From a virus, in the IMG/VR virus record IMGVR_UViG_3300025889_001239, positions 1 through 20,025 of that record: a stretch of DNA of 20,025 bases; one strand, written 5' to 3'. This document shows, piece after piece, positions 4,500 through 20,025 of the stretch. Below the pieces are notes generated by a model, which saw nothing but the letters and a program-made list of their open reading frames with translations, had not been told where the DNA came from and did not search any database. Position 1 is the first letter of the stretch. Every line of letters begins with the position of its first letter. The position numbers and the translations under genes are program-made.

Positions 4500-4668
4500 G
4501 CTTCTCCTTCCACCTACTGTCTCCGTACTCTGGCGACTCTTGTAGTGTACGAAATTCTTGCACCAAGTCACGCATTAAATGCTCATCATCCTCAAGCCGA
4601 GTGATCAGAGAAAAGCATAGGGCGCGGTACGCAACATACTTTGCCCTGTAGTGTTCTGCTTCAGTCAT
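4480..4668 (-). CDS. Small hypothetical protein downstream of the methyltransferase
   Basis: The protein has 62 aa, is helical and rich in Tyr and acidic residues (MTEAEHYRAKYVAYRALCF...). Its ATG overlaps the methyltransferase stop as ATGA, so its translation probably depends on ribosomes reaching the end of the methyltransferase frame. That makes it a possible read-out of whether the frameshift upstream is bypassed. No family is recognised. Confidence 0.55.
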   Translation of the reverse strand: MTEAEHYRAKYVAYRALCFSLITRLEDDEHLMRDLVQEFRTLQESPEYGDSRWKEKHGIPFD

Positions 4669-5157
4669 AAGCTATCAACCTGCTGTATCCGCTCACCGAT
4701 CCAGCGCATCACTGGCACAGCCATAGAGTTACCCAGAGCCTTGTACCTCGGCCCGTCTGGACACTTATCTGCTGGCTTGTTGCGGTACGGGATCTGCGTG
4801 AAGCCGTCAGGGAATCCCTGCAGCCTCTCGCACTCAGTTGGTGTCAGGCGTCTGACTGCCATGCCCTTCGCCACCGCAGGCGAGGCAGACGTGAGCATTG
4901 ACGGGCTAACGTCATAACCCAGAGCGCCCATTGCGTCAGCGTTGGCGTTAGAGGGGAAGGCCACACAGCTCGCCGCATCCATGTCCGACCTCGCGGCTAC
5001 CGTCTGCGAAACATCTTCCGCCTCTGCCATCTGGTTGTAGGCAGAAAACGCCACAACATCACCCTGACCGCTAGCAACATTTGGACTACTGTTGCTAGAT
5101 GGGCTGGCGCTGAGGCAGTTAGCCGTTACTGGCGCAAAGGCCACCGTGTTGAAGCCA

Positions 5158-5733
5158 TCAGCCCGACTGTATTCGTGGCAGGTGGTCTCCAAGGTTGCCG
5201 CCACATCGCTTTGTTTGTTGCCAGCGAATGTCATCGGCACAATGGCCTCGCACTCTACTCGCTCGTTTCCTGTGCGACTGAAAGGAGGGCCTGTAGTAAC
5301 AGCGGGGGCAACTTTTTTCCCCTCCTCTCTGCTCGGCGCAGCCCCTCCTCTCTGCTCGGCGCAGGATTCCCTGACAGGCTTTCGCACTCAAAAAGAACCG
5401 CTGCGGCACGTCTCCAGTCTCCAAGGTATCCGACAACGAAGACACGACGGCGTCGCTGGGCCACTCCCCAGTATTGAGCGTCACAAATTCTGTAGGCGAA
5501 CCCATACCCGATTTCAGCCAGCGCCCCGAGGAAGGAGCCAAAGTCCCGTCCTCCGTTAGATGACAAGACGCCGGGGACGTTTTCCCAGACCACCCACTGT
5601 GGCCTCTTGCGTTGAGCAAGCCTAATGAATTCGAGTGCCAAGTTACCGCGCTCATCATCCATTCCGCCTCTAAGTCCGGCGATGCTGAATGATTGGCAGG
5701 GGGTTCCTCCGACAAGAAGTCCAACTGATCCAT
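5158..5733 (-). CDS. ORF embedded in the methyltransferase gene in another frame, also broken by the duplication
   Basis: Inside the methyltransferase coding region a third frame starts at ATG 5733 (MDQLDFLSEEPP...), with a GGAGAGG ribosome-binding site 6 nt upstream at 5740-5746. It includes SLSDTLETGDVPQRFFLSAKACQGILRRAERRG. I recall this type of sequence as a separately annotated phage protein overlapping C5 methyltransferase genes, usually ending RRAEKRGKxLPPxLxxAL. Here the 23-bp duplication diverts the frame into an unrelated tail ending at 5158. Without one repeat copy the ORF would continue into LPPLLLQALLSVAQETSE and stop at 5255, giving 151 aa. No function is known to me. Sequence conservation could partly be forced by the overlapping methyltransferase. 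Confidence 0.5.
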   Translation of the reverse strand: MDQLDFLSEEPPANHSASPDLEAEWMMSAVTWHSNSLGLLNARGHSGWSGKTSPASCHLTEDGTLAPSSGRWLKSGMGSPTEFVTLNTGEWPSDAVVSSLSDTLETGDVPQRFFLSAKACQGILRRAERRGCAEQRGGEKSCPRCYYRPSFQSHRKRASRVRGHCADDIRWQQTKRCGGNLGDHLPRIQSG

Positions 5734-5908
5734 AATCATCCTCTCCGATAGTGGTGAAATCACCGTGGCATGGAACCTCGGGGTAATGGTGCGCCAACAC
5801 CTCGCGCGGGAATTGTTCTATTTCAGAAAAAAATGCGGGTTCCCATCCTAAACCATGCCACGCCATGGTCGCGGCCTCTATGCCAGAGCATACTGAGCCG
5901 TACCTCAT
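5255..5908 (-). CDS. C5 cytosine methyltransferase, catalytic N-terminal part, frameshifted
   Basis: This 217-aa frame holds the catalytic half of a DNA (cytosine-5) methyltransferase: motif I GSVCSGIEAA (4-13) for S-adenosylmethionine, motif IV GGTPCQSFS with catalytic Cys71, motif VI WENV (108-111), and motif VIII QRRRRVF (151-157). It then runs into a 23-bp tandem duplication, after which this frame no longer encodes the target-recognition region but ends in LPPLLLQALLSVAQETSE, the natural C-terminus of a different, embedded ORF. The start ATG overlaps the stop of the upstream gene (ATGA). The enzyme probably protects phage DNA against host restriction. Whether active enzyme is made depends on frameshifting or on population copies lacking the duplication. 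Confidence 0.9.
   Translation of the reverse strand: MRYGSVCSGIEAATMAWHGLGWEPAFFSEIEQFPREVLAHHYPEVPCHGDFTTIGEDDYGSVGLLVGGTPCQSFSIAGLRGGMDDERGNLALEFIRLAQRKRPQWVVWENVPGVLSSNGGRDFGSFLGALAEIGYGFAYRICDAQYWGVAQRRRRVFVVGYLGDWRRAAAVLFECESLSGNPAPSREEGLRRAERRGKKLPPLLLQALLSVAQETSE
5312..5318 (-). other. In-frame A_AAA_AAG slippery heptamer, candidate -1 frameshift site
   Basis: Just after the duplication the N-terminal methyltransferase frame reads GGA AAA AAG, i.e. the heptamer A_AAA_AAG in the phase needed for -1 slippage, the same heptamer as in E. coli dnaX. A Shine-Dalgarno-like AGGAGG lies only 2 nt upstream. A slip gives GTT GCC and enters the C-terminal methyltransferase frame, for a 414-aa protein. 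A weak hairpin (CTGT-TACT-ACAG) follows about 9 nt downstream; no strong stimulator is evident. Confidence 0.5.
5319..5364. repeat. Perfect 23-bp tandem duplication
   Basis: Positions 5319-5341 and 5342-5364 are identical: each begins CCCCTCCTCTCT and ends GGCGCAG on the plus strand. As 23 is not a multiple of three, the second copy shifts the frames of both overlapping ORFs. Removing one copy rejoins the methyltransferase frame exactly (1,221 nt, 406 aa) and the embedded ORF exactly (456 nt, 151 aa). It may be a real insertion, a reversible two-copy/one-copy switch, or an assembly artefact. Confidence 0.95.
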
Positions 5909-6283: not shown

Positions 6284-6667
6284 CTAATTGAATGAAATTA
6301 ATTTGTAGTCAGGATCTGCCTCTAGCTTCTTCAATTCCTCCCGATAATGCTTGGCTATCTCTCGCCTCAGCTGTGCGTTGGTCTTCATATGACCCCGAGC
6401 CTTCTCCCTCAAAATTTCCATGTGACCATCACCAAACAATTGATAGCAAAGGCGAGACATTTCCAGAGGGTTCTCGGTCATCACTCGATGATGATAGTGG
6501 CACATGGCAAACGCGTTATCGGCTGACCATCTCACAACCTTATTTCTTCGGCCGTATATATGACAGGCTTCGAGTGTGTCCTCTCTGCCGCAAACTAGGC
6601 ATTTGCCATCCCTAGCTCGCACCGCCTTGCTGAACCAAATGTCTGCCGCGTCTCGCTTAATCGCCAC
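6284..6667 (-). CDS. HNH nuclease-like zinc protein, NinG-like
   Basis: The protein has 127 aa. A zinc knuckle CLVC (23-26) is followed by the HNH core: ACHIYGR with His36, Asn51 (WSADNAF) and CHYHH with Cys56 and His59. The basic, helical C-terminus (QLRREIAKHYREELKKLE) resembles that of phage NinG (Rap), a structure-specific nuclease for recombination intermediates, and a NinB gene lies nearby. The start is GTG at 6667, overlapping the zinc-finger gene before it by 11 nt. A free-standing homing-type HNH enzyme is the alternative. After the stop come A/T-rich bases but no clear hairpin. Confidence 0.75.
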   Translation of the reverse strand: MAIKRDAADIWFSKAVRARDGKCLVCGREDTLEACHIYGRRNKVVRWSADNAFAMCHYHHRVMTENPLEMSRLCYQLFGDGHMEILREKARGHMKTNAQLRREIAKHYREELKKLEADPDYKLISFN

Positions 6668-6906: not shown

Positions 6907-7164
6907 CTAATGCAACTCCGAACTAGCATCCGAGATGATGTACTCCATCTCCCCCTCTAGCTCCTCAAGCTCACAACATAAGCAGGTCAGCCACACCCGC
7001 ACAAAGTCAGTCAGCGATATGTCCACGGTGATCCCCTCCGGGAACGTGTCAGTGTAGACATCTGTGATGTTTTTGTTGGCTGGGTTTGGCATGGCAGCGC
7101 CGACCGTCGATGTCAGCAACGCAACCTCGCCCTTTCCCATAGGAACCTTAAACACCGGAATCAT
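6907..7164 (-). CDS. Hypothetical acidic protein
   Basis: The protein has 85 aa. An N-terminal hydrophobic and Gly/Pro part (MIPVFKVPMGKGEVALL) leads to a strongly acidic C-terminal helix with two adjacent Cys (LTCLCCELEELEGEME). The start overlaps the metallophosphoesterase stop (ATGA), which is the main evidence that it is translated. No family is recognised. Confidence 0.55.
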   Translation of the reverse strand: MIPVFKVPMGKGEVALLTSTVGAAMPNPANKNITDVYTDTFPEGITVDISLTDFVRVWLTCLCCELEELEGEMEYIISDASSELH

Positions 7165-8321
7165 ACACGCGGCCTCACTGTTATTCTGGCGATCTCGCCA
7201 TCATTCTTGTCGTAGGTAATTACTTTTGCGCCCCTCAGAGACACCCAGCCACCTCTTGCCGCGTATGCGTCCCGGCCCGCTAGTGTTGGATGTTGCTCTG
7301 CGATAGCTCCACCGTCTTCCACAACCCTCTCATGGTGATAATGCCCTGTGTGCAAATAGCAGAATTCAGCCTTGCCCCACATAGACCGAAAACGCGGCTC
7401 ACTAGCAAACAGCTTGTGTAGCTGCGCCATTTTTACCTTATGCCCGTGATGAAAACCCAGCATAGTCTTGCCATGCAGGTAGGCGTAATAGGGGAAGTCA
7501 TTGTCAATCACCTCAAGCCTTGGCTCGTTAGCAAACAAATGCTTAATGTGCTTTCGTAGCCAGATGCTCCCTGATATATCGTGATTACCTTCCGCAGACA
7601 CCACCACCACTTTGTCAAACTTCTTCAGCATCATCTTGACCGCTTCAGTCATGACAGACATCGCCATCTCTACCAACTTGCCGTAGCGCGTGTCGGAATC
7701 GAGTATGTGACCGCTAGATGGGGTGACGCTAAGTATCCCGTCCCAGTGCAAGAAGTCCCCTAGCTGGCACAGGACGCCAGTGCCTGATTTTGGCGACGCC
7801 ATTATCATGTCGTTTATTGAGTTGAGAAAAACATCCCGAGCTATGTTTACATCCCAGTCGTCGCCTGTCTCAGCTTCGTATGCGTACATCCCGAGGTGGA
7901 AATCCGTAATCGTTAGTAGCGTCAGCAAATCCTCATCGGATGACTTTGGGGCAGCAACAGGCTTGAATGGTTTTAGCCCCTCCTGCGCCTTCTCTAACCG
8001 CTCAACAAGGATCTCAAACTGGCGCTGCTCGTCGGTCTGAGACTTAACCCATTGCCTGATCGGGTTGCCTAGCTCGTCGTAAAACGTGGATACGCCTTTA
8101 ATTTTGTGACCATCTGGCACTGGCCTAAACCAATTGTGCTCTGGGCTGTATCCTTGCTTTGCAGCCTTCCGCCGTACAGTTTGAATATGGTGCTTAACAG
8201 CCTGACGGGTGCTACTTAAAGCCTCCGCCGCCTTGTATTGAGACAGACCCTGCACGAAGCAAAGCTCGATCACTTCTCTTTGTTTTTGTGTTGAGCAAAA
8301 CTCCAATAACGGATGTTCCAT
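7161..8321 (-). CDS. Metallophosphoesterase with N-terminal helix-turn-helix
   Basis: The protein has 386 aa. Residues 10-55 (GLSQYKAAEALSSTRQAVKHHIQTV) look like a sigma-region-4 or LuxR-type helix-turn-helix. After a linker comes a calcineurin-like phosphoesterase with all metal motifs: TDFH (Asp140, His142), GDFLHWDG (Asp189, His192), EGNHD (Asn246, His247), HHGH (291-294) and HTGHYHH (about 324-330). The family includes SbcD/Mre11-type nucleases and phosphodiesterases; among recombination genes a DNA-acting role is likely but inferred. A GGGGGGA site precedes the ATG, and NinB ends 1 nt before it. The HTH fusion suggests DNA targeting. Confidence 0.85.
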   Translation of the reverse strand: MEHPLLEFCSTQKQREVIELCFVQGLSQYKAAEALSSTRQAVKHHIQTVRRKAAKQGYSPEHNWFRPVPDGHKIKGVSTFYDELGNPIRQWVKSQTDEQRQFEILVERLEKAQEGLKPFKPVAAPKSSDEDLLTLLTITDFHLGMYAYEAETGDDWDVNIARDVFLNSINDMIMASPKSGTGVLCQLGDFLHWDGILSVTPSSGHILDSDTRYGKLVEMAMSVMTEAVKMMLKKFDKVVVVSAEGNHDISGSIWLRKHIKHLFANEPRLEVIDNDFPYYAYLHGKTMLGFHHGHKVKMAQLHKLFASEPRFRSMWGKAEFCYLHTGHYHHERVVEDGGAIAEQHPTLAGRDAYAARGGWVSLRGAKVITYDKNDGEIARITVRPRV

Positions 8322-15904: not shown

Positions 15905-17103
15905 TTAGCTAGTGGAGCAATCGTAAACTGCACCAGATGACTTCTCGTTCTTGCTGACCAAAGTAAGCTCAGTCAGAACTTGACGCTTCTCGTAGTCACC
16001 GTCTTTCGCCAAGGCTTCGTTCTTGGTCGGACGCAGTACGCCAACCGCAAACATATCGTCTTGGATAACAAAGACATCAGAGCCACGCTGCTCACGCGAG
16101 GGTACAAACTTAACCGTGCCCCAAGGAGTAACATAGACGCTCATGTGCTTGATGACAGTTTCTGACTCTGCCTTGATCATGCTTTGCTGTGAGTTATTTC
16201 CAGCAAAACCTTGGGAGACATTCATCTGATATGCAGACAAGTAAACCGTGTCGGGCTTGCCACCAGACTCCCAGATTGACTGCATTACGCTGTCAAAACG
16301 GGTCTGAGAGAAAGCCGCAGCCGTACCGTCAGTGCGAGCGTCAGTGCCGTTACCAGTAGCCGCAGTTGCGTCAGCTGCCTCGTCGATGTTGGTGACGATC
16401 CATGAAGGCAGACCAGCAAGCTCACGCGCAGTTGAGCTATCGCCAGCAACGCGAGCGTTGTTAGCAAACAAAGCCTTCTCGATGTCCAGCTTCTGCTCTT
16501 TTGCAATCTTCAGAGTCTGATAAGCCATTTCCTTGGCACGACCGGCCTTATCAAGACCTTCGTCAGTGCCGGGGATGATTACCGCATTCTTGAAGATTTG
16601 CGTGTAGTTGCCCAAGCGGGTGGTCGCGGTGCGAGCCTCAGCAGCAGTCGCGTCACCTTCAATGTGCGCGTTAGCTGCCGATGAACGCAGTGCGTCAGTT
16701 TGCCACTCATGGTAAGTGTTGCGGGCCTTAGCTTTCGCGCAGGTTGAGTAAAACGGCGTATCTTCCATTCGTTATGCTAAGGCTCTTTATCCCTAGCTCT
16801 TAGGCTTTCGCCTAAGTATCGGACTATATCTTCACCCTAGAGGGGTGTCGCGCACTCGTGGAGCTTTACCGACTGTTCTAGTCTCCATGCTCTAGTCTCT
16901 GAACCTTCTGCCTGTCCCCAGACAGCTTGGCTGCTGATTGGCCTATCTTTCGACTTAGCGTCCCAGCAATTCACGCGATTATCGCTTCTAAATTACTTCA
17001 GAGCGGCCCCAAGTTAAGGCGATACGTCATGGATGACATCGGAAAGATCTTCCCTGATGCCGACAGCATCATAACTGTCAAACGTGTTGGATGGCTGTGC
17101 CAT
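15905..17103 (-). CDS. Major capsid protein, SU10/DUF5309-like, interrupted by a group I intron
   Basis: Exon 1 is 17103-17017 (29 codons, ending ...DVSP), exon 2 is 16765-15905 (286 codons plus stop, starting EDTPFYST). Joined, they give 315 aa with the N-terminal arm expected for this coat-protein family: an F-x-x-Y-D-x-x-G-x-R-E-D-L segment and the S-P-x-D-T-P-F turn, then NTYHEWQTDAL and further on VIIPGTDEG, KEQKLDIEKAL, GLPSWI and VYVTPWGTVKFVPSREQ. The ATG at 16768 that would open exon 2 alone is formed by the last intron bases and is not a true start. The true start has GAGGT 8 nt upstream. The position after the scaffold gene and before a strong terminator fits a coat protein. The intron boundary is inferred, not proven. 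Confidence 0.9.
16766..17016 (-). ncRNA. Group I intron (probably IA2) in the major capsid gene
   Basis: This 251-nt element shows the conserved core in order: P (AATTGCTGGGA), Q (AATCAGCAGCC), R (GTTCAGAGACTA) and S (AAGATATAGTCC). Pairings seen by eye: P4 TGCTG/CAGCA, P6 TGTC/GACA, P7 GACTA/TAGTC, P7.1 GAGC/GCTC, P7.2 GACT/AGTC, P3 CGTG/CACG, P8 CACCC/GGGTG and P9 CTTAGGC-GAAA-GCCTAAG at 16799-16816. The 5' exon ends in U (GCCU) opposite a guide GGGC, giving the U-G wobble, and the intron ends in G. The first intron codon is an in-frame TAA that would stop ribosomes on unspliced RNA. There is no homing-endonuclease ORF inside. Confidence 0.93.
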
Positions 17104-17113
17104 GTTAATTACC

Positions 17114-18049
17114 TCATTTAAGGATTAGTGATAGAGCGTCGTCAATGCTTCCGCTCTTCTTCAGTTTTTGTCGAGTTTGTCGCTCGGCGTCTGCGTTGGA
17201 TCGCGTCTTCTTAGCGCCAGCCCTGACAGTACGCTTTGCCTTTGGCTTGGCGTTATTCTGGGCCTGCTTCTTTCCAGACATCAATTCTTGATACTTAATG
17301 GCGTCGTGCAATACGCGGATTGCTCGGTGATCCATTACTGCACCAATTTCACCCGGGTCGTAGCCGTAAATCTCTTGACCCATCGTCACAAGACGGTCAC
17401 GGGTCTGAGCGGCTGTGTCTGGGCTAGAAAACTCTGGCACTAAAGTTTTTAGCGTTTCCATCTCACGCTCTAAATAAACGCGCTGGGCATATTGCTGGGC
17501 CTGACTCTGTTGCTGTACCGCTTGTTGCAACTGGTAGATTTGTGCGTCATATACCTGCTTTGCCTCCTCGTAGTCCTCTCTGGCACTGCTGTACCCGATG
17601 GGATCAATATCCCTGAGTGACTTATCTGGAGGTGTCGGCGCTTGCGGCAGACCGCTCTGTGCATACTGCAACAGTTGTCCGATCTGCTGGCGCTCATTTA
17701 ATAGGTGTGCATAAACCTCTTCTGCCTGCTTTCGCATTGAAGCGGCTTCCTGCATACCCTTCTGGACATACTTCTGACCACTGTATCCTCGCTTGAGATC
17801 ATCTAGGCTTACCTGTTCTTCCTTGCCGTCAACTTTGACGGTGTATAGATCGGGGGCCGCAGTCTCTGCTTCCTCAGCGTCTTCGTATTCGTCCTCGGAG
17901 TCATCATCTGACTCCACTTCATCGAACTCAGCCTCTACTTCGGCTTCGTCCTCTTCAACTACCTCGTCCTCCACCTCTTCGGCTTCTGGTTGCGGGGCAA
18001 GTAAACCTTCAACGGCGCTTTCAAAACTATCAAGTTCAGTCGTATCCAC
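17114..18049 (-). CDS. Capsid scaffolding protein
   Basis: The protein has 311 aa. The first 64 residues are very acidic (repeated E/D/V), then comes YTVKVDGKEEQVSLDDLKRGYSG, a motif shared by phage scaffold-like proteins that precede SU10-type coats, then long Gln/Ala-rich coiled-coil helices (AKQVYDAQIYQLQQAVQQQ), and a basic C-terminus (KPKAKRTVRAGAKK) that would bind the coat protein. No protease motif is seen. It lies between the portal region and the capsid gene, as expected for a head-assembly scaffold. The capsid start follows 10 nt after its stop. Confidence 0.88.
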   Translation of the reverse strand: MDTTELDSFESAVEGLLAPQPEAEEVEDEVVEEDEAEVEAEFDEVESDDDSEDEYEDAEEAETAAPDLYTVKVDGKEEQVSLDDLKRGYSGQKYVQKGMQEAASMRKQAEEVYAHLLNERQQIGQLLQYAQSGLPQAPTPPDKSLRDIDPIGYSSAREDYEEAKQVYDAQIYQLQQAVQQQSQAQQYAQRVYLEREMETLKTLVPEFSSPDTAAQTRDRLVTMGQEIYGYDPGEIGAVMDHRAIRVLHDAIKYQELMSGKKQAQNNAKPKAKRTVRAGAKKTRSNADAERQTRQKLKKSGSIDDALSLILK

Positions 18050-18061
18050 GGTACTGAGTCC

Positions 18062-18292
18062 TCATTTGTGTTTTTTGTCGTAGATCGCCTCATCCTGTAG
18101 GACTTGGGCAATGCAATCTTCGATCTTTCCAAGCGCCCGAACAATCGTGTGCGCCTCCGCCCGATCATCGTCAGATGAGTACGGGTTAAAAAAGATATCA
18201 CCCTGATCTTTTTTAATCTTCTCCACAAGGTAATTGAATGCCTCATCACCTTGTAGACGCCTTATGCCAGCGCCCAGATCCTTTATATTCAT
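18062..18292 (-). CDS. Small hypothetical protein between portal and scaffold
   Basis: The protein has 76 aa, starts MNIKDLGAGIRRLQGDEAFNYLVEKIKKDQ and is helical and charged throughout, with a basic end (YDKKHK). Its ATG overlaps the portal stop by 4 nt. Small helical proteins in this position are common in podovirus-like head operons and remain uncharacterised; a role in head assembly is plausible by position only. Confidence 0.65.
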   Translation of the reverse strand: MNIKDLGAGIRRLQGDEAFNYLVEKIKKDQGDIFFNPYSSDDDRAEAHTIVRALGKIEDCIAQVLQDEAIYDKKHK

Positions 18293-20025
18293 CTAGGCAT
18301 TGCCTGCATTTGCTTAATTCTCTGTACGTCTAGCGCAGTGCCGTACTTGCCAAGTATCTCAGCCGCGCTAATCAACAAGTCTTGATCCATTTTATCACGC
18401 GCAAGGTCATCGTCAGCCATCGCCTTCTGAGCGTCTAGCTGCATCTTGAATTGATCCTTCTGCGCCTGAGCCTGCAACTTAGCCATGTCGGTCTGAGCCT
18501 TGGCCTGCGCTTTCATTGACTCGGCTTGTAGGTACGCCTGAGCCTGCGCGTCTTGCGGCTGACCCTGCTGTTGCTGGGCCGCTTGTTGTTGTTGCATTAG
18601 CAACTGCTGCTCAACCTGCGGGTTCATGGGATTAAAGTAGCGGGTACTGTTGCGGATGCCGTTAAGGGCAAGAATGTCTGCCAGAGTGTTACGCACTTGA
18701 GTGAGCGTCACGATTCCATTCTGCGGCCCGTACTGACCAAGTATTTGCTGCTGAACTTGGAATGCCTGCATAAGTGCCGCCAGCTTCTGTTCCTCGCGCC
18801 CAGTGCCTAGACCCACGTTCACCGTTACGTCCATCGTGACGTTCCAAGAGCGCGGGTCTACGGGGACATAGCCCTCACCAACAAGGCGCATCATTTGCGC
18901 TTCTTCCACGTTCTCGTGCATTACCTTGAGCATCAAAGTAAACATCTGCCGCATACCGCCCTCAGCAAGATTGCGAGCCATAACCTCAATCTGCCCTGCC
19001 TGAGCCTGTACGGTGGCCTGAACTGCGGCGGCGGTAGTGTTTTGCAATGAGTCGGGAGATAGGCCAGTAGACGCTTTTGTCACGCCTGTCTTGTTCTCAA
19101 TCTCTTGATCCATGTACTGAAGCGCGGTCAGCGTTTGACCGGCAACAAATGGGATTGCCTGCGGCTGTATAGCGCCAGCCTGCTTAACTCGGATAATGCC
19201 GCCAATCTCATTGTTTAGCAGATCATCAATGTTTACAGCGCCGTCAACAATCTCAAGACGCGGGTTGTTGGTCAGGGCTACGTTATCCAGAACACCCCTC
19301 AGCATAGCCGTGGATGCGTCCTGATCGTTAATGATCAAATCAGCTACCGATCGACCGTAGAAAGTGTGCGGCTCTGGATCTACTTCAAACACGGCAAACG
19401 GAATGTGCGAGCAGGCCATGTAATCCAGCAACTTATAGGCGGCTCCGCCAAGGGTGACCTTTTGCAGCGTAGGGACGCCACTGCCGGTTACATCAATCTT
19501 CATGTAAACCTCAGTGACGGCAACAAGGCGCATAGCCGGATCTTGGATATCCTCGTCGGAGTAATCCTCTTCGTAGCCCCTGCGCTCAAACTCCTCAACC
19601 TCTGAGAACGTGTCTGAGTGCTGAAGGCCGGTAAGATCCTTCACATCCTCGTAGTCATAGCCCATAGATATCAGGTCGCCAATCCGCATTTCTGTACGGT
19701 GGCACACCGCGTAGGCGTCCTTGATGTTTCTGGCGTTTCGATCAACAAAGAACTCTTCCGGCGGCACTGACTCAATGCACATCTTGCCGACATCTTTGTA
19801 GCGAGCAATTTTCAAATCGTAGATGGGGGTTTCAATCTCCATCCCCATCTCATCAATTTGAATCTCAATTCGAGTTGTAGACTCAAGCACCTCAACATCG
19901 TCATCCATCGTCAGGACGCGATATTCCATCTCGTTGAGGTTTTCAAACTCGTATGTTTCTTGCTCTTGGTAGTTGTCCCAGTAGACCTTAACGATGCCGA
20001 CCTTCTTGACCATTGCATCGTGGAA
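18289..20025 (-). CDS. Portal protein, N-terminus outside the window
   Basis: The frame is open to the right edge (FHDA before the Met at 20013), so at least the first part of the protein is missing; 578 residues are visible. VKKVGIVKVYWDNY, then CHRTEMRIGDLISMGYD, FEVDPEPHTFYGRSVADLI, NNPRLEIVDGAVNIDDLL and GVTKASTGLSPDSLQNTTAAAV fit the portal type seen in P22-like and other podovirus-like phages. The final 100 residues are a Gln/Ala-rich coiled coil (barrel-like C-terminus), followed by a short helix. It forms the dodecameric DNA channel at one capsid vertex. The small-protein gene overlaps its stop by 4 nt. Confidence 0.92.
   Translation of the reverse strand, partial: FHDAMVKKVGIVKVYWDNYQEQETYEFENLNEMEYRVLTMDDDVEVLESTTRIEIQIDEMGMEIETPIYDLKIARYKDVGKMCIESVPPEEFFVDRNARNIKDAYAVCHRTEMRIGDLISMGYDYEDVKDLTGLQHSDTFSEVEEFERRGYEEDYSDEDIQDPAMRLVAVTEVYMKIDVTGSGVPTLQKVTLGGAAYKLLDYMACSHIPFAVFEVDPEPHTFYGRSVADLIINDQDASTAMLRGVLDNVALTNNPRLEIVDGAVNIDDLLNNEIGGIIRVKQAGAIQPQAIPFVAGQTLTALQYMDQEIENKTGVTKASTGLSPDSLQNTTAAAVQATVQAQAGQIEVMARNLAEGGMRQMFTLMLKVMHENVEEAQMMRLVGEGYVPVDPRSWNVTMDVTVNVGLGTGREEQKLAALMQAFQVQQQILGQYGPQNGIVTLTQVRNTLADILALNGIRNSTRYFNPMNPQVEQQLLMQQQQAAQQQQGQPQDAQAQAYLQAESMKAQAKAQTDMAKLQAQAQKDQFKMQLDAQKAMADDDLARDKMDQDLLISAAEILGKYGTALDVQRIKQMQAMPR

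What the first reader, a model, noticed from the sequence alone, without database searches (positions are those of the whole stretch)
16766..17103. Group I intron without endonuclease splits the major capsid gene
The capsid gene is cut at the conserved S-P|E-D-T-P-F turn by a 251-nt element carrying all four group I core motifs, a GNRA-capped P9 and P7.1/P7.2 hairpins of the IA2 type. Splicing between CCT and GAA joins the two reading frames with no residue lost. A TAA directly after the splice site would stop ribosomes on precursor RNA, so coat protein depends on splicing. No homing gene lies inside, so the intron is either non-mobile or relies on an enzyme in trans. Without this reading, annotation would give a coat protein that lacks its first 29 residues.
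Basis: partly seen in the sequence, partly recalled or inferred. Interest (0 to 1): 0.85.

Follow-up and report, generated by a model that had tools for sequence, protein, structure and literature searches.

The report
Mobile self-splicing intron in capsid gene
A phage's main coat-protein gene is cut in two by a small self-splicing RNA intron that carries no mobility gene, yet relatives of this intron keep jumping into the same gene of other phages at several positions, sometimes two or three per gene.

Summary
Rfam finds a group I intron (RF00028, 82.8 bits, E 4.7e-20) on the minus strand. The exact 251-nt element is 17016..16766, and removing it joins two frames into a 315-aa SU10-type major capsid protein. 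A second contig has it letter for letter; a relative whose capsid gene is 95% identical lacks it cleanly. Covariation across 17 related introns is decisive (97.3% of pairs kept; 36 of 69 pairs changed on both sides; 0/500 shuffles). Splicing itself was not observed. New here: the intron belongs to a family without endonuclease genes that sits in SU10-type capsid genes of IMG/VR phages at seven or more positions, up to three per gene. In 14 intron-bearing records, all 18 introns lie in the capsid gene. The family is mobile: intron identity far exceeds capsid identity (96% versus 75% or 38%), and presence changes about 12 times on the capsid tree. Short upstream exon tracts travel with the intron, which favours DNA-level homing by an enzyme in trans over plain reverse splicing; no such enzyme was found. 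Capsid-gene introns were known before (LittleE, Tuc2009). This is a new member of a known kind with an unusual family pattern.

The parts
17017..17103 (-). Exon 1 of the major capsid gene: start codon 17103..17101, 29 codons, ends TCGCCT; Shine-Dalgarno GAGG at 17115..17112
   Evidence: identical frame uninterrupted in L002
16766..17016 (-). Group I intron, 251 nt, ends with omega-G (16766); no endonuclease gene
   Evidence: RF00028 82.8 bits; boundaries; covariation; 100% identical in L006/L210
15905..16765 (-). Exon 2 of the major capsid gene (EDTPF... to stop)
   Evidence: joined protein = SU10_MCP PF17236 4.6e-85, phrog_1328 1.6e-89
17006..17009 (-). Internal guide sequence GGGC; pairs with exon GCCU 17020..17017 to form P1 with U.G at the 5' splice site
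   Evidence: fold; same pairing at sites A, D and E in relatives
17014..17016 (-). In-frame TAA directly after the 5' splice site
   Evidence: 24 of 24 related introns have an in-frame stop within 10 codons
17011..17013 (-). CUU, P10 partner of AAG (16764..16762) at the start of exon 2
   Evidence: own-exon pairing exceeds permuted exons, 23/5000
16983..17005 (-). P2 hairpin
16903..16968 (-). P4-P5-P6-P6a domain
16973..16978 (-). P3 5' strand (partner 16848..16853)
16893..16897 (-). P7 5' strand GACUA (partner UAGUC 16822..16826), guanosine-binding helix, pseudoknotted with P3
   Evidence: invariant
16861..16892 (-). P7.1 arm with inner hairpin, IA-type
   Evidence: helices 8 and 9, two-sided changes
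16799..16816 (-). P9 with GAAA tetraloop
16776..16797 (-). 3' peripheral hairpin (P9.2-like)

Best explanation
The element is a functional, self-splicing group I intron (IA-type core) without an endonuclease gene. It interrupts the SU10-type major capsid gene after codon 29 and must be removed from the mRNA for full-length coat protein. Inferred chemistry: P1 presents the GCCU exon end to guanosine bound in P7, the intron is cut free, and P10 (CUU with AAG) and omega-G position exon 2 for ligation. Translation of unspliced RNA stops at the TAA directly after the splice site. The intron was gained recently: a relative with a 96%-identical capsid protein has an empty site. It belongs to a mobile family that moves among SU10-type capsid genes. 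Most likely route (inferred, about 0.5): DNA-level homing with a short 5' exon conversion tract, started by an endonuclease supplied in trans. Occasional ectopic moves go to sites of the same gene that share the GCCU guide target.
For: Covariance hit. Exact in-frame boundaries. Joined protein matches SU10_MCP end to end. Intron identical in L006/L210; empty sites in L002 and 78 other close relatives. Compensatory changes in 36 of 69 pairs. P1 and P10 fit their own exons. Good Shine-Dalgarno for the 17103 start, none at normal spacing for 16768. Mobility: intron 96% vs capsid 75% aa (WIN/L083), 96% vs 38% (L209/L214), 100% vs 85% (L213/L134), against 88% intron for 97% capsid (L213/L216); about 12 presence changes on the capsid tree, at least 7 on well-supported branches. 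DNA-level transfer: L146 vs intronless L035 differ at -13, -10, -7 and -4 and at nothing within 137 nt downstream; the tract GTGTATGTA occurs in 4 of 6 site-D intron alleles and 0 of 82 intronless alleles.
Against: No RNA evidence: splicing was not observed. No endonuclease found: GIY-YIG, LAGLIDADG_3 and HNH_3 absent from 14 intron-bearing records; Endonuclease VII-like genes in 4 of 14 and in 1 of 14 intronless long records, not adjacent to the capsid gene; no gene shared by all intron bearers and missing from non-bearers. Most records are fragments. The conversion signature is clear at site D only; at site A changes at -4 and -1 could be selection for guide pairing. Density test for L146/L035 is moderate (1% of 20-nt windows are as dense).
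Confidence: 0.88

Rival explanations
1. The family spreads mainly at the RNA level: excised intron reverse-splices into capsid RNA at GCCU sites, followed by reverse transcription and recombination. This is the route proposed for fungal rDNA introns (PMC1299323).
For: Sites A, D and E share the exon end GCCU and guide GGGC although surrounding sequences differ; sites B and C1 share AGAU. The same gene carries two related introns (L134 A and D 85% identical; L220 D and E). No nuclease gene. Exon identity falls to background within about 6 nt at site A.
Against: Reverse splicing leaves the target's exons unchanged, yet synonymous upstream tracts travel with site-D introns. Monophyly of site A is not rejected (AU p 0.10; site D 0.08). 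Any ectopic insertion must match the guide sequence to survive. No reverse transcriptase was looked for.
Confidence: 0.25
2. The insert is a decayed relic and the phage makes a shortened coat protein from the ATG at 16768.
For: An in-frame ATG sits exactly at the intron end and opens a 287-aa frame.
Against: Exon 1 is intact with a good Shine-Dalgarno; 16768 has none at normal spacing. Core sequence is intact and pairing is conserved by compensatory changes. Residues 1-29 are present in the full-length matches of close intronless relatives. The NTG before exon 2 recurs as the intron end at sites where it is out of frame with exon 2 (site B).
Confidence: 0.03
3. Assembly or binning artefact.
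For: All intron-bearing genomes here are metagenome contigs; no annotated record examined has one.
Against: Identical intron in a second contig that matches the window at 99.87% over 10 kb; tens of independent contigs with the same arrangement and compensatory changes.
Confidence: 0.01
4. [quoted passage not shown]
For: 24 of 24 related introns carry an in-frame stop within 30 nt of the 5' splice site; the review PMC3984707 discusses such stops as ribosome-stalling devices.
Against: Patchy presence among near-identical phages shows it is dispensable; stops of this kind are reported for many group I introns.
Confidence: 0.1

Closest known systems
Mycobacteriophage LittleE major capsid intron (PMC3706429)
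   Same: Probable group I intron in a phage major capsid gene; removed from RNA (RT-PCR, N-terminal sequencing); empty site in relatives
   Different: 819 bp with a homing endonuclease ORF, different capsid family, single site, called 'most likely' group I by its authors
BAKA/Optimus tail-gene intron (PMC3706429)
   Same: 265 bp, no endonuclease gene, spliced, in a virion gene
   Different: Minor tail gene, one site, no wider family described
Lactococcal phage Tuc2009 capsid-gene intron (cited in PMC3706429)
   Same: Group I intron in a capsid gene
   Different: Other phage lineage; primary paper not read here
S-PM2 psbA intron with free-standing F-CphI ('collaborative homing', PMC6083498)
   Same: Group I intron moved by an endonuclease encoded outside it
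   Different: There the endonuclease gene is adjacent to the interrupted gene; here none is known
T4 nrdB intron and MobE trans homing (PMC2988022)
   Same: Intron mobilised in trans, exon co-conversion
   Different: Carries a defunct endonuclease ORF; here there is none
Fungal rDNA group I introns spread by reverse splicing (PMC1299323)
   Same: Related introns at several sites of one gene
   Different: Nuclear rDNA rather than a protein gene of a virus
Octadecabacter Antarctic DB virus 2 (MW805364)
   Same: Closest annotated relative of the capsid gene, 67% aa
   Different: Capsid gene uninterrupted

Membership tests
Group I catalytic intron (RF00028) | Covariance-model match above the curated threshold | tested here: met
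   82.8 bits vs 50, full model
Group I catalytic intron (RF00028) | P3/P7 pseudoknotted core with conserved P, Q, R, S strings and P4-P6 | tested here: met
   core columns conserved in 17 introns; P3 covaries, P7 invariant
Group I catalytic intron (RF00028) | Exon 1 ends in U paired with G of the guide sequence; intron ends in G | tested here: met
   GCCU with GGGC; last base 16766 is G; the same in 24 introns examined
Group I catalytic intron (RF00028) | Removal restores an uninterrupted gene found in relatives | tested here: met
   joined 315 aa matches uninterrupted genes in L002 and 78 more loci
Group I catalytic intron (RF00028) | Guanosine-dependent self-splicing | not testable with these tools
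   needs in vitro transcription
Subgroup IA2 | P7.1/P7.2 arrangement and IA2-specific features | tested here: inconclusive
   nested P7.1 arm present and covarying; no subtype-specific model available
HEG-bearing mobile group I intron | Endonuclease ORF inside the intron | tested here: not met
   251 nt, longest stop-to-stop stretch 58 codons
Collaborative homing pair (S-PM2 type) | Free-standing endonuclease gene beside the interrupted gene | tested here: not met
   neighbours are scaffold, portal, a 98-aa ORF and lysis genes; window HNH at 6284-6667 is NinG/Rap-like and about 9 kb away
SU10-type major capsid protein (PF17236) | Profile match over the whole joined protein | tested here: met
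   7-310 of 315, E 4.6e-85

The most novel reading that the evidence does not exclude
A family of group I introns without any endonuclease gene has specialised on one virion gene (SU10-type major capsid) of uncultured phages. It moves frequently between divergent alleles and between sites of the same gene that share the guide target, either with a yet unknown trans enzyme or partly by reverse splicing. It would be a natural system for endonuclease-gene-free group I intron spread in a protein-coding gene.
Probability: 0.4. Interest if true: 0.72.

Novelty: new member of a known kind. Interest (0 to 1): 0.5.

Why it matters
A 2025 survey calls the sporadic occurrence of phage group I introns, with apparent preference for nucleotide-synthesis and DNA-metabolism genes, mysterious (PMC12350094). 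Here related introns sit in a virion gene expected to be highly expressed, at seven or more positions, up to three per gene, carry no mobility gene and still move. Near-isogenic intron-plus and intron-minus alleles are available, so trans homing and reverse splicing can be told apart experimentally. Practically, annotation truncates such capsid genes, here by 29 residues, and capsid-based surveys may miss or split them.

Tried and rejected
Free-standing endonuclease partner: HNH_3, GIY-YIG, HNH, LAGLIDADG_3 and Endonuclease VII models over whole records and a shared-gene screen between intron-bearing and intronless records gave no consistent candidate. The Endonuclease VII-like gene 1-3.5 kb downstream in L134, L213, L216 and L217 is shared by that lineage only. 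Two or more independent site-A origins: suggested by identity and by the tree but not significant (AU p 0.10). Split capsid genes among annotated phages: Kuravirus-type records with partial matches (KBNP1711, EP335, myPSH2311) turned out to be uninterrupted or degraded in annotation, not shown to be intron-split. A covariance model of our own was not built because models of about 250 positions exceed the calibration limit. First L192 and L220_E boundaries in alignment A1 were off by some bases and were corrected in A2.

Full report
Observation. On the minus strand the window reads portal (18289-20025), scaffold (17114-18049) and then a 29-codon frame from 17103 that stops at once (MAQPSNTFDSYDAVGIREDLSDVIHDVSP*), followed by a 287-codon frame from 16768. 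cmscan gives one hit in the whole window, RF00028 Intron_gpI at 17025..16799, 82.8 bits, E 4.7e-20, full model. A splice CCT|GAA removes 17016..16766, 251 nt ending in G. It yields a 315-aa protein that matches SU10_MCP (PF17236, 4.6e-85) and phrog_1328 (1.6e-89) over its length. The 17103 start has GAGG eight bases upstream; the ATG at 16768 has no such signal at normal spacing.

Presence and absence. L006/L210 (IMG/VR 3300006916_000648) is the same phage at 99.87% over 10 kb and has the identical intron. L002 has an uninterrupted capsid gene, 94.8% nt and 96% aa identical, with an empty site; all other close capsid loci of the first scan are uninterrupted as well. The closest annotated phage, Octadecabacter Antarctic DB virus 2 (67% aa), is also uninterrupted, and in 289 of 300 annotated phage records with a capsid match one place covers at least 80% of the protein.

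Structure. The minimum-energy fold of the strand shows P1 to P6, P7.1, P8, P9 and a 3' hairpin, z = -3.3 against shuffles. On 17 related capsid-gene introns, a structure of 69 pairs including the P3/P7 pseudoknot is kept in 97.3% of cells. 36 pairs have changes on both sides, and no shuffle of 500 reached any of the five measures; sliding partners by one to three columns drops pairing to 32-41%. P10 complementarity between the intron's 5' leader and its own exon 2 exceeds permuted exons (23 of 5000). All 24 introns examined have an in-frame stop within 10 codons of the 5' splice site.

The family. Site-specific scans gave 16 contigs for site A (the site of this finding), 6 for site D and 3 for site B. 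Resolved sites, in window capsid numbering: A after 29 (TCGCCT|GAAGA), B at about 86 (CAGAT|CTTTAA), C1 and C2 near 112-117, F near 124, E near 213 (GCCT|TAGG), D after 243 (ACGCCT|TGGGG). L150 has three introns in one capsid gene; L134, L098, L220, L221 and L223 have two; L205, a contig of a Methylocystaceae MAG, also has two. The 24 introns extracted measure 250-274 nt and none holds an endonuclease ORF. In 14 intron-bearing records of 10-35 kb, all 18 Rfam hits fall in the capsid gene; 14 intronless records have none (the records were chosen through capsid introns or the capsid gene, so the result says only that they carry no others).

Mobility. Same-site introns are far more alike than the genes around them: WIN and L083 96% vs capsid 75% aa; L209 and L214 96% vs 38%; L213 and L134 100% vs 85%; L216 and L217 100% vs 85%. 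L213 and L216, whose capsids are 97% identical, have introns only 88% identical. L220 and L221 have identical capsid proteins and nearly identical D introns, but one has an additional E intron and the other a C2 intron. On a tree of 50 capsid proteins intron presence needs 12 changes, at least 7 on starred branches.

Route. Three observations bear on it. First, intron-bearing alleles have CGCCT at sites A and D without exception among the resolved members, while only 3 of 82 intronless alleles have GCCT at either site. The window differs from L002 at -4 and -1 (TCCCCC to TCGCCT), both synonymous and both in the guide-pairing stretch. Second, at site D the change extends beyond the guide: L146 differs from intronless L035 at -13, -10, -7 and -4 and then not until -79 upstream and +138 downstream. 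The tract GTGTATGTA occurs upstream of 4 of 6 site-D introns, from two capsid lineages 68% identical, and in 0 of 82 intronless alleles. That looks like co-conversion, the mark of endonuclease-driven DNA homing (PMC2988022). Its density is moderate in statistical terms (1% of 20-nt windows in that pair). Third, sites A, D and E share the target GCCU, and L134's D intron is closest to its own A intron (85%) rather than to other D introns (79-80%), which suggests ectopic moves inside the gene. The tree does not reject one origin per site (AU p 0.10 and 0.08). I therefore prefer trans homing with occasional ectopic moves (about 0.5) over reverse splicing (about 0.25), and leave the rest open.

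Enzyme. None was found. GIY-YIG, LAGLIDADG_3 and HNH_3 are absent from the intron-bearing records; weak HNH matches occur in both groups; Endonuclease VII-like genes occur in 4 of 14 intron-bearing records, 1-3.5 kb downstream of the capsid gene. F-CphI, the known collaborative homing enzyme, uses the Endonuclease VII motif (PMC6083498), so those four deserve a test, but the window phage shows no Endonuclease VII match in the near-identical record L006. A shared-gene screen found no gene common to all intron bearers and absent from others. The available records are fragments, so a missing gene is not proof of absence.

Comparison. Introns in capsid genes have been described (LittleE, with RT-PCR and N-terminal sequence; Tuc2009, cited there; PMC3706429). 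Endonuclease-less phage introns are also known (BAKA). The element itself is therefore a new member of a known kind. I found no paper describing repeated invasion of one capsid family by endonuclease-less introns; the library searched is open-access only.

Noticed in passing
L220 and L221, capsid genes: Identical capsid proteins and 99% identical D introns, but L220 carries an extra intron at about residue 213 and L221 an extra one at about residue 112: very recent turnover.
   Followed up: partly
L150:111-1794, L144:2500-3909, L153, L205: Capsid genes with two or three group I introns (three in L150); L205 lies in a contig of a Methylocystaceae MAG.
   Followed up: partly
window 4665-5908 (-): A C5-cytosine methyltransferase appears spread over three overlapping frames (N-terminal 5255-5908, C-terminal 4665-5387); frameshift, assembly error or decay. 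The near-isogenic L002 differs in this stretch.
   Followed up: partly
window 6284-6667 (-): Small HNH protein of the NinG/Rap type (phrog_5034, 4.7e-17); similar genes occur in intronless relatives, so not an obvious intron partner.
   Followed up: partly
L134, L213, L216, L217, 1-3.5 kb downstream of the capsid gene: Free-standing Endonuclease VII-like gene in the lysis region, the same motif family as the homing enzyme F-CphI.
   Followed up: partly
L197:9528-9766: Group I intron one codon away from site A (SPT|AETPF) with a different guide sequence: apparently an independent insertion.
   Followed up: no
window 7161-8321 (-): 386-aa protein with a sigma-70 region 4-like N-terminus at about the Pfam cut-off.
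   Followed up: no
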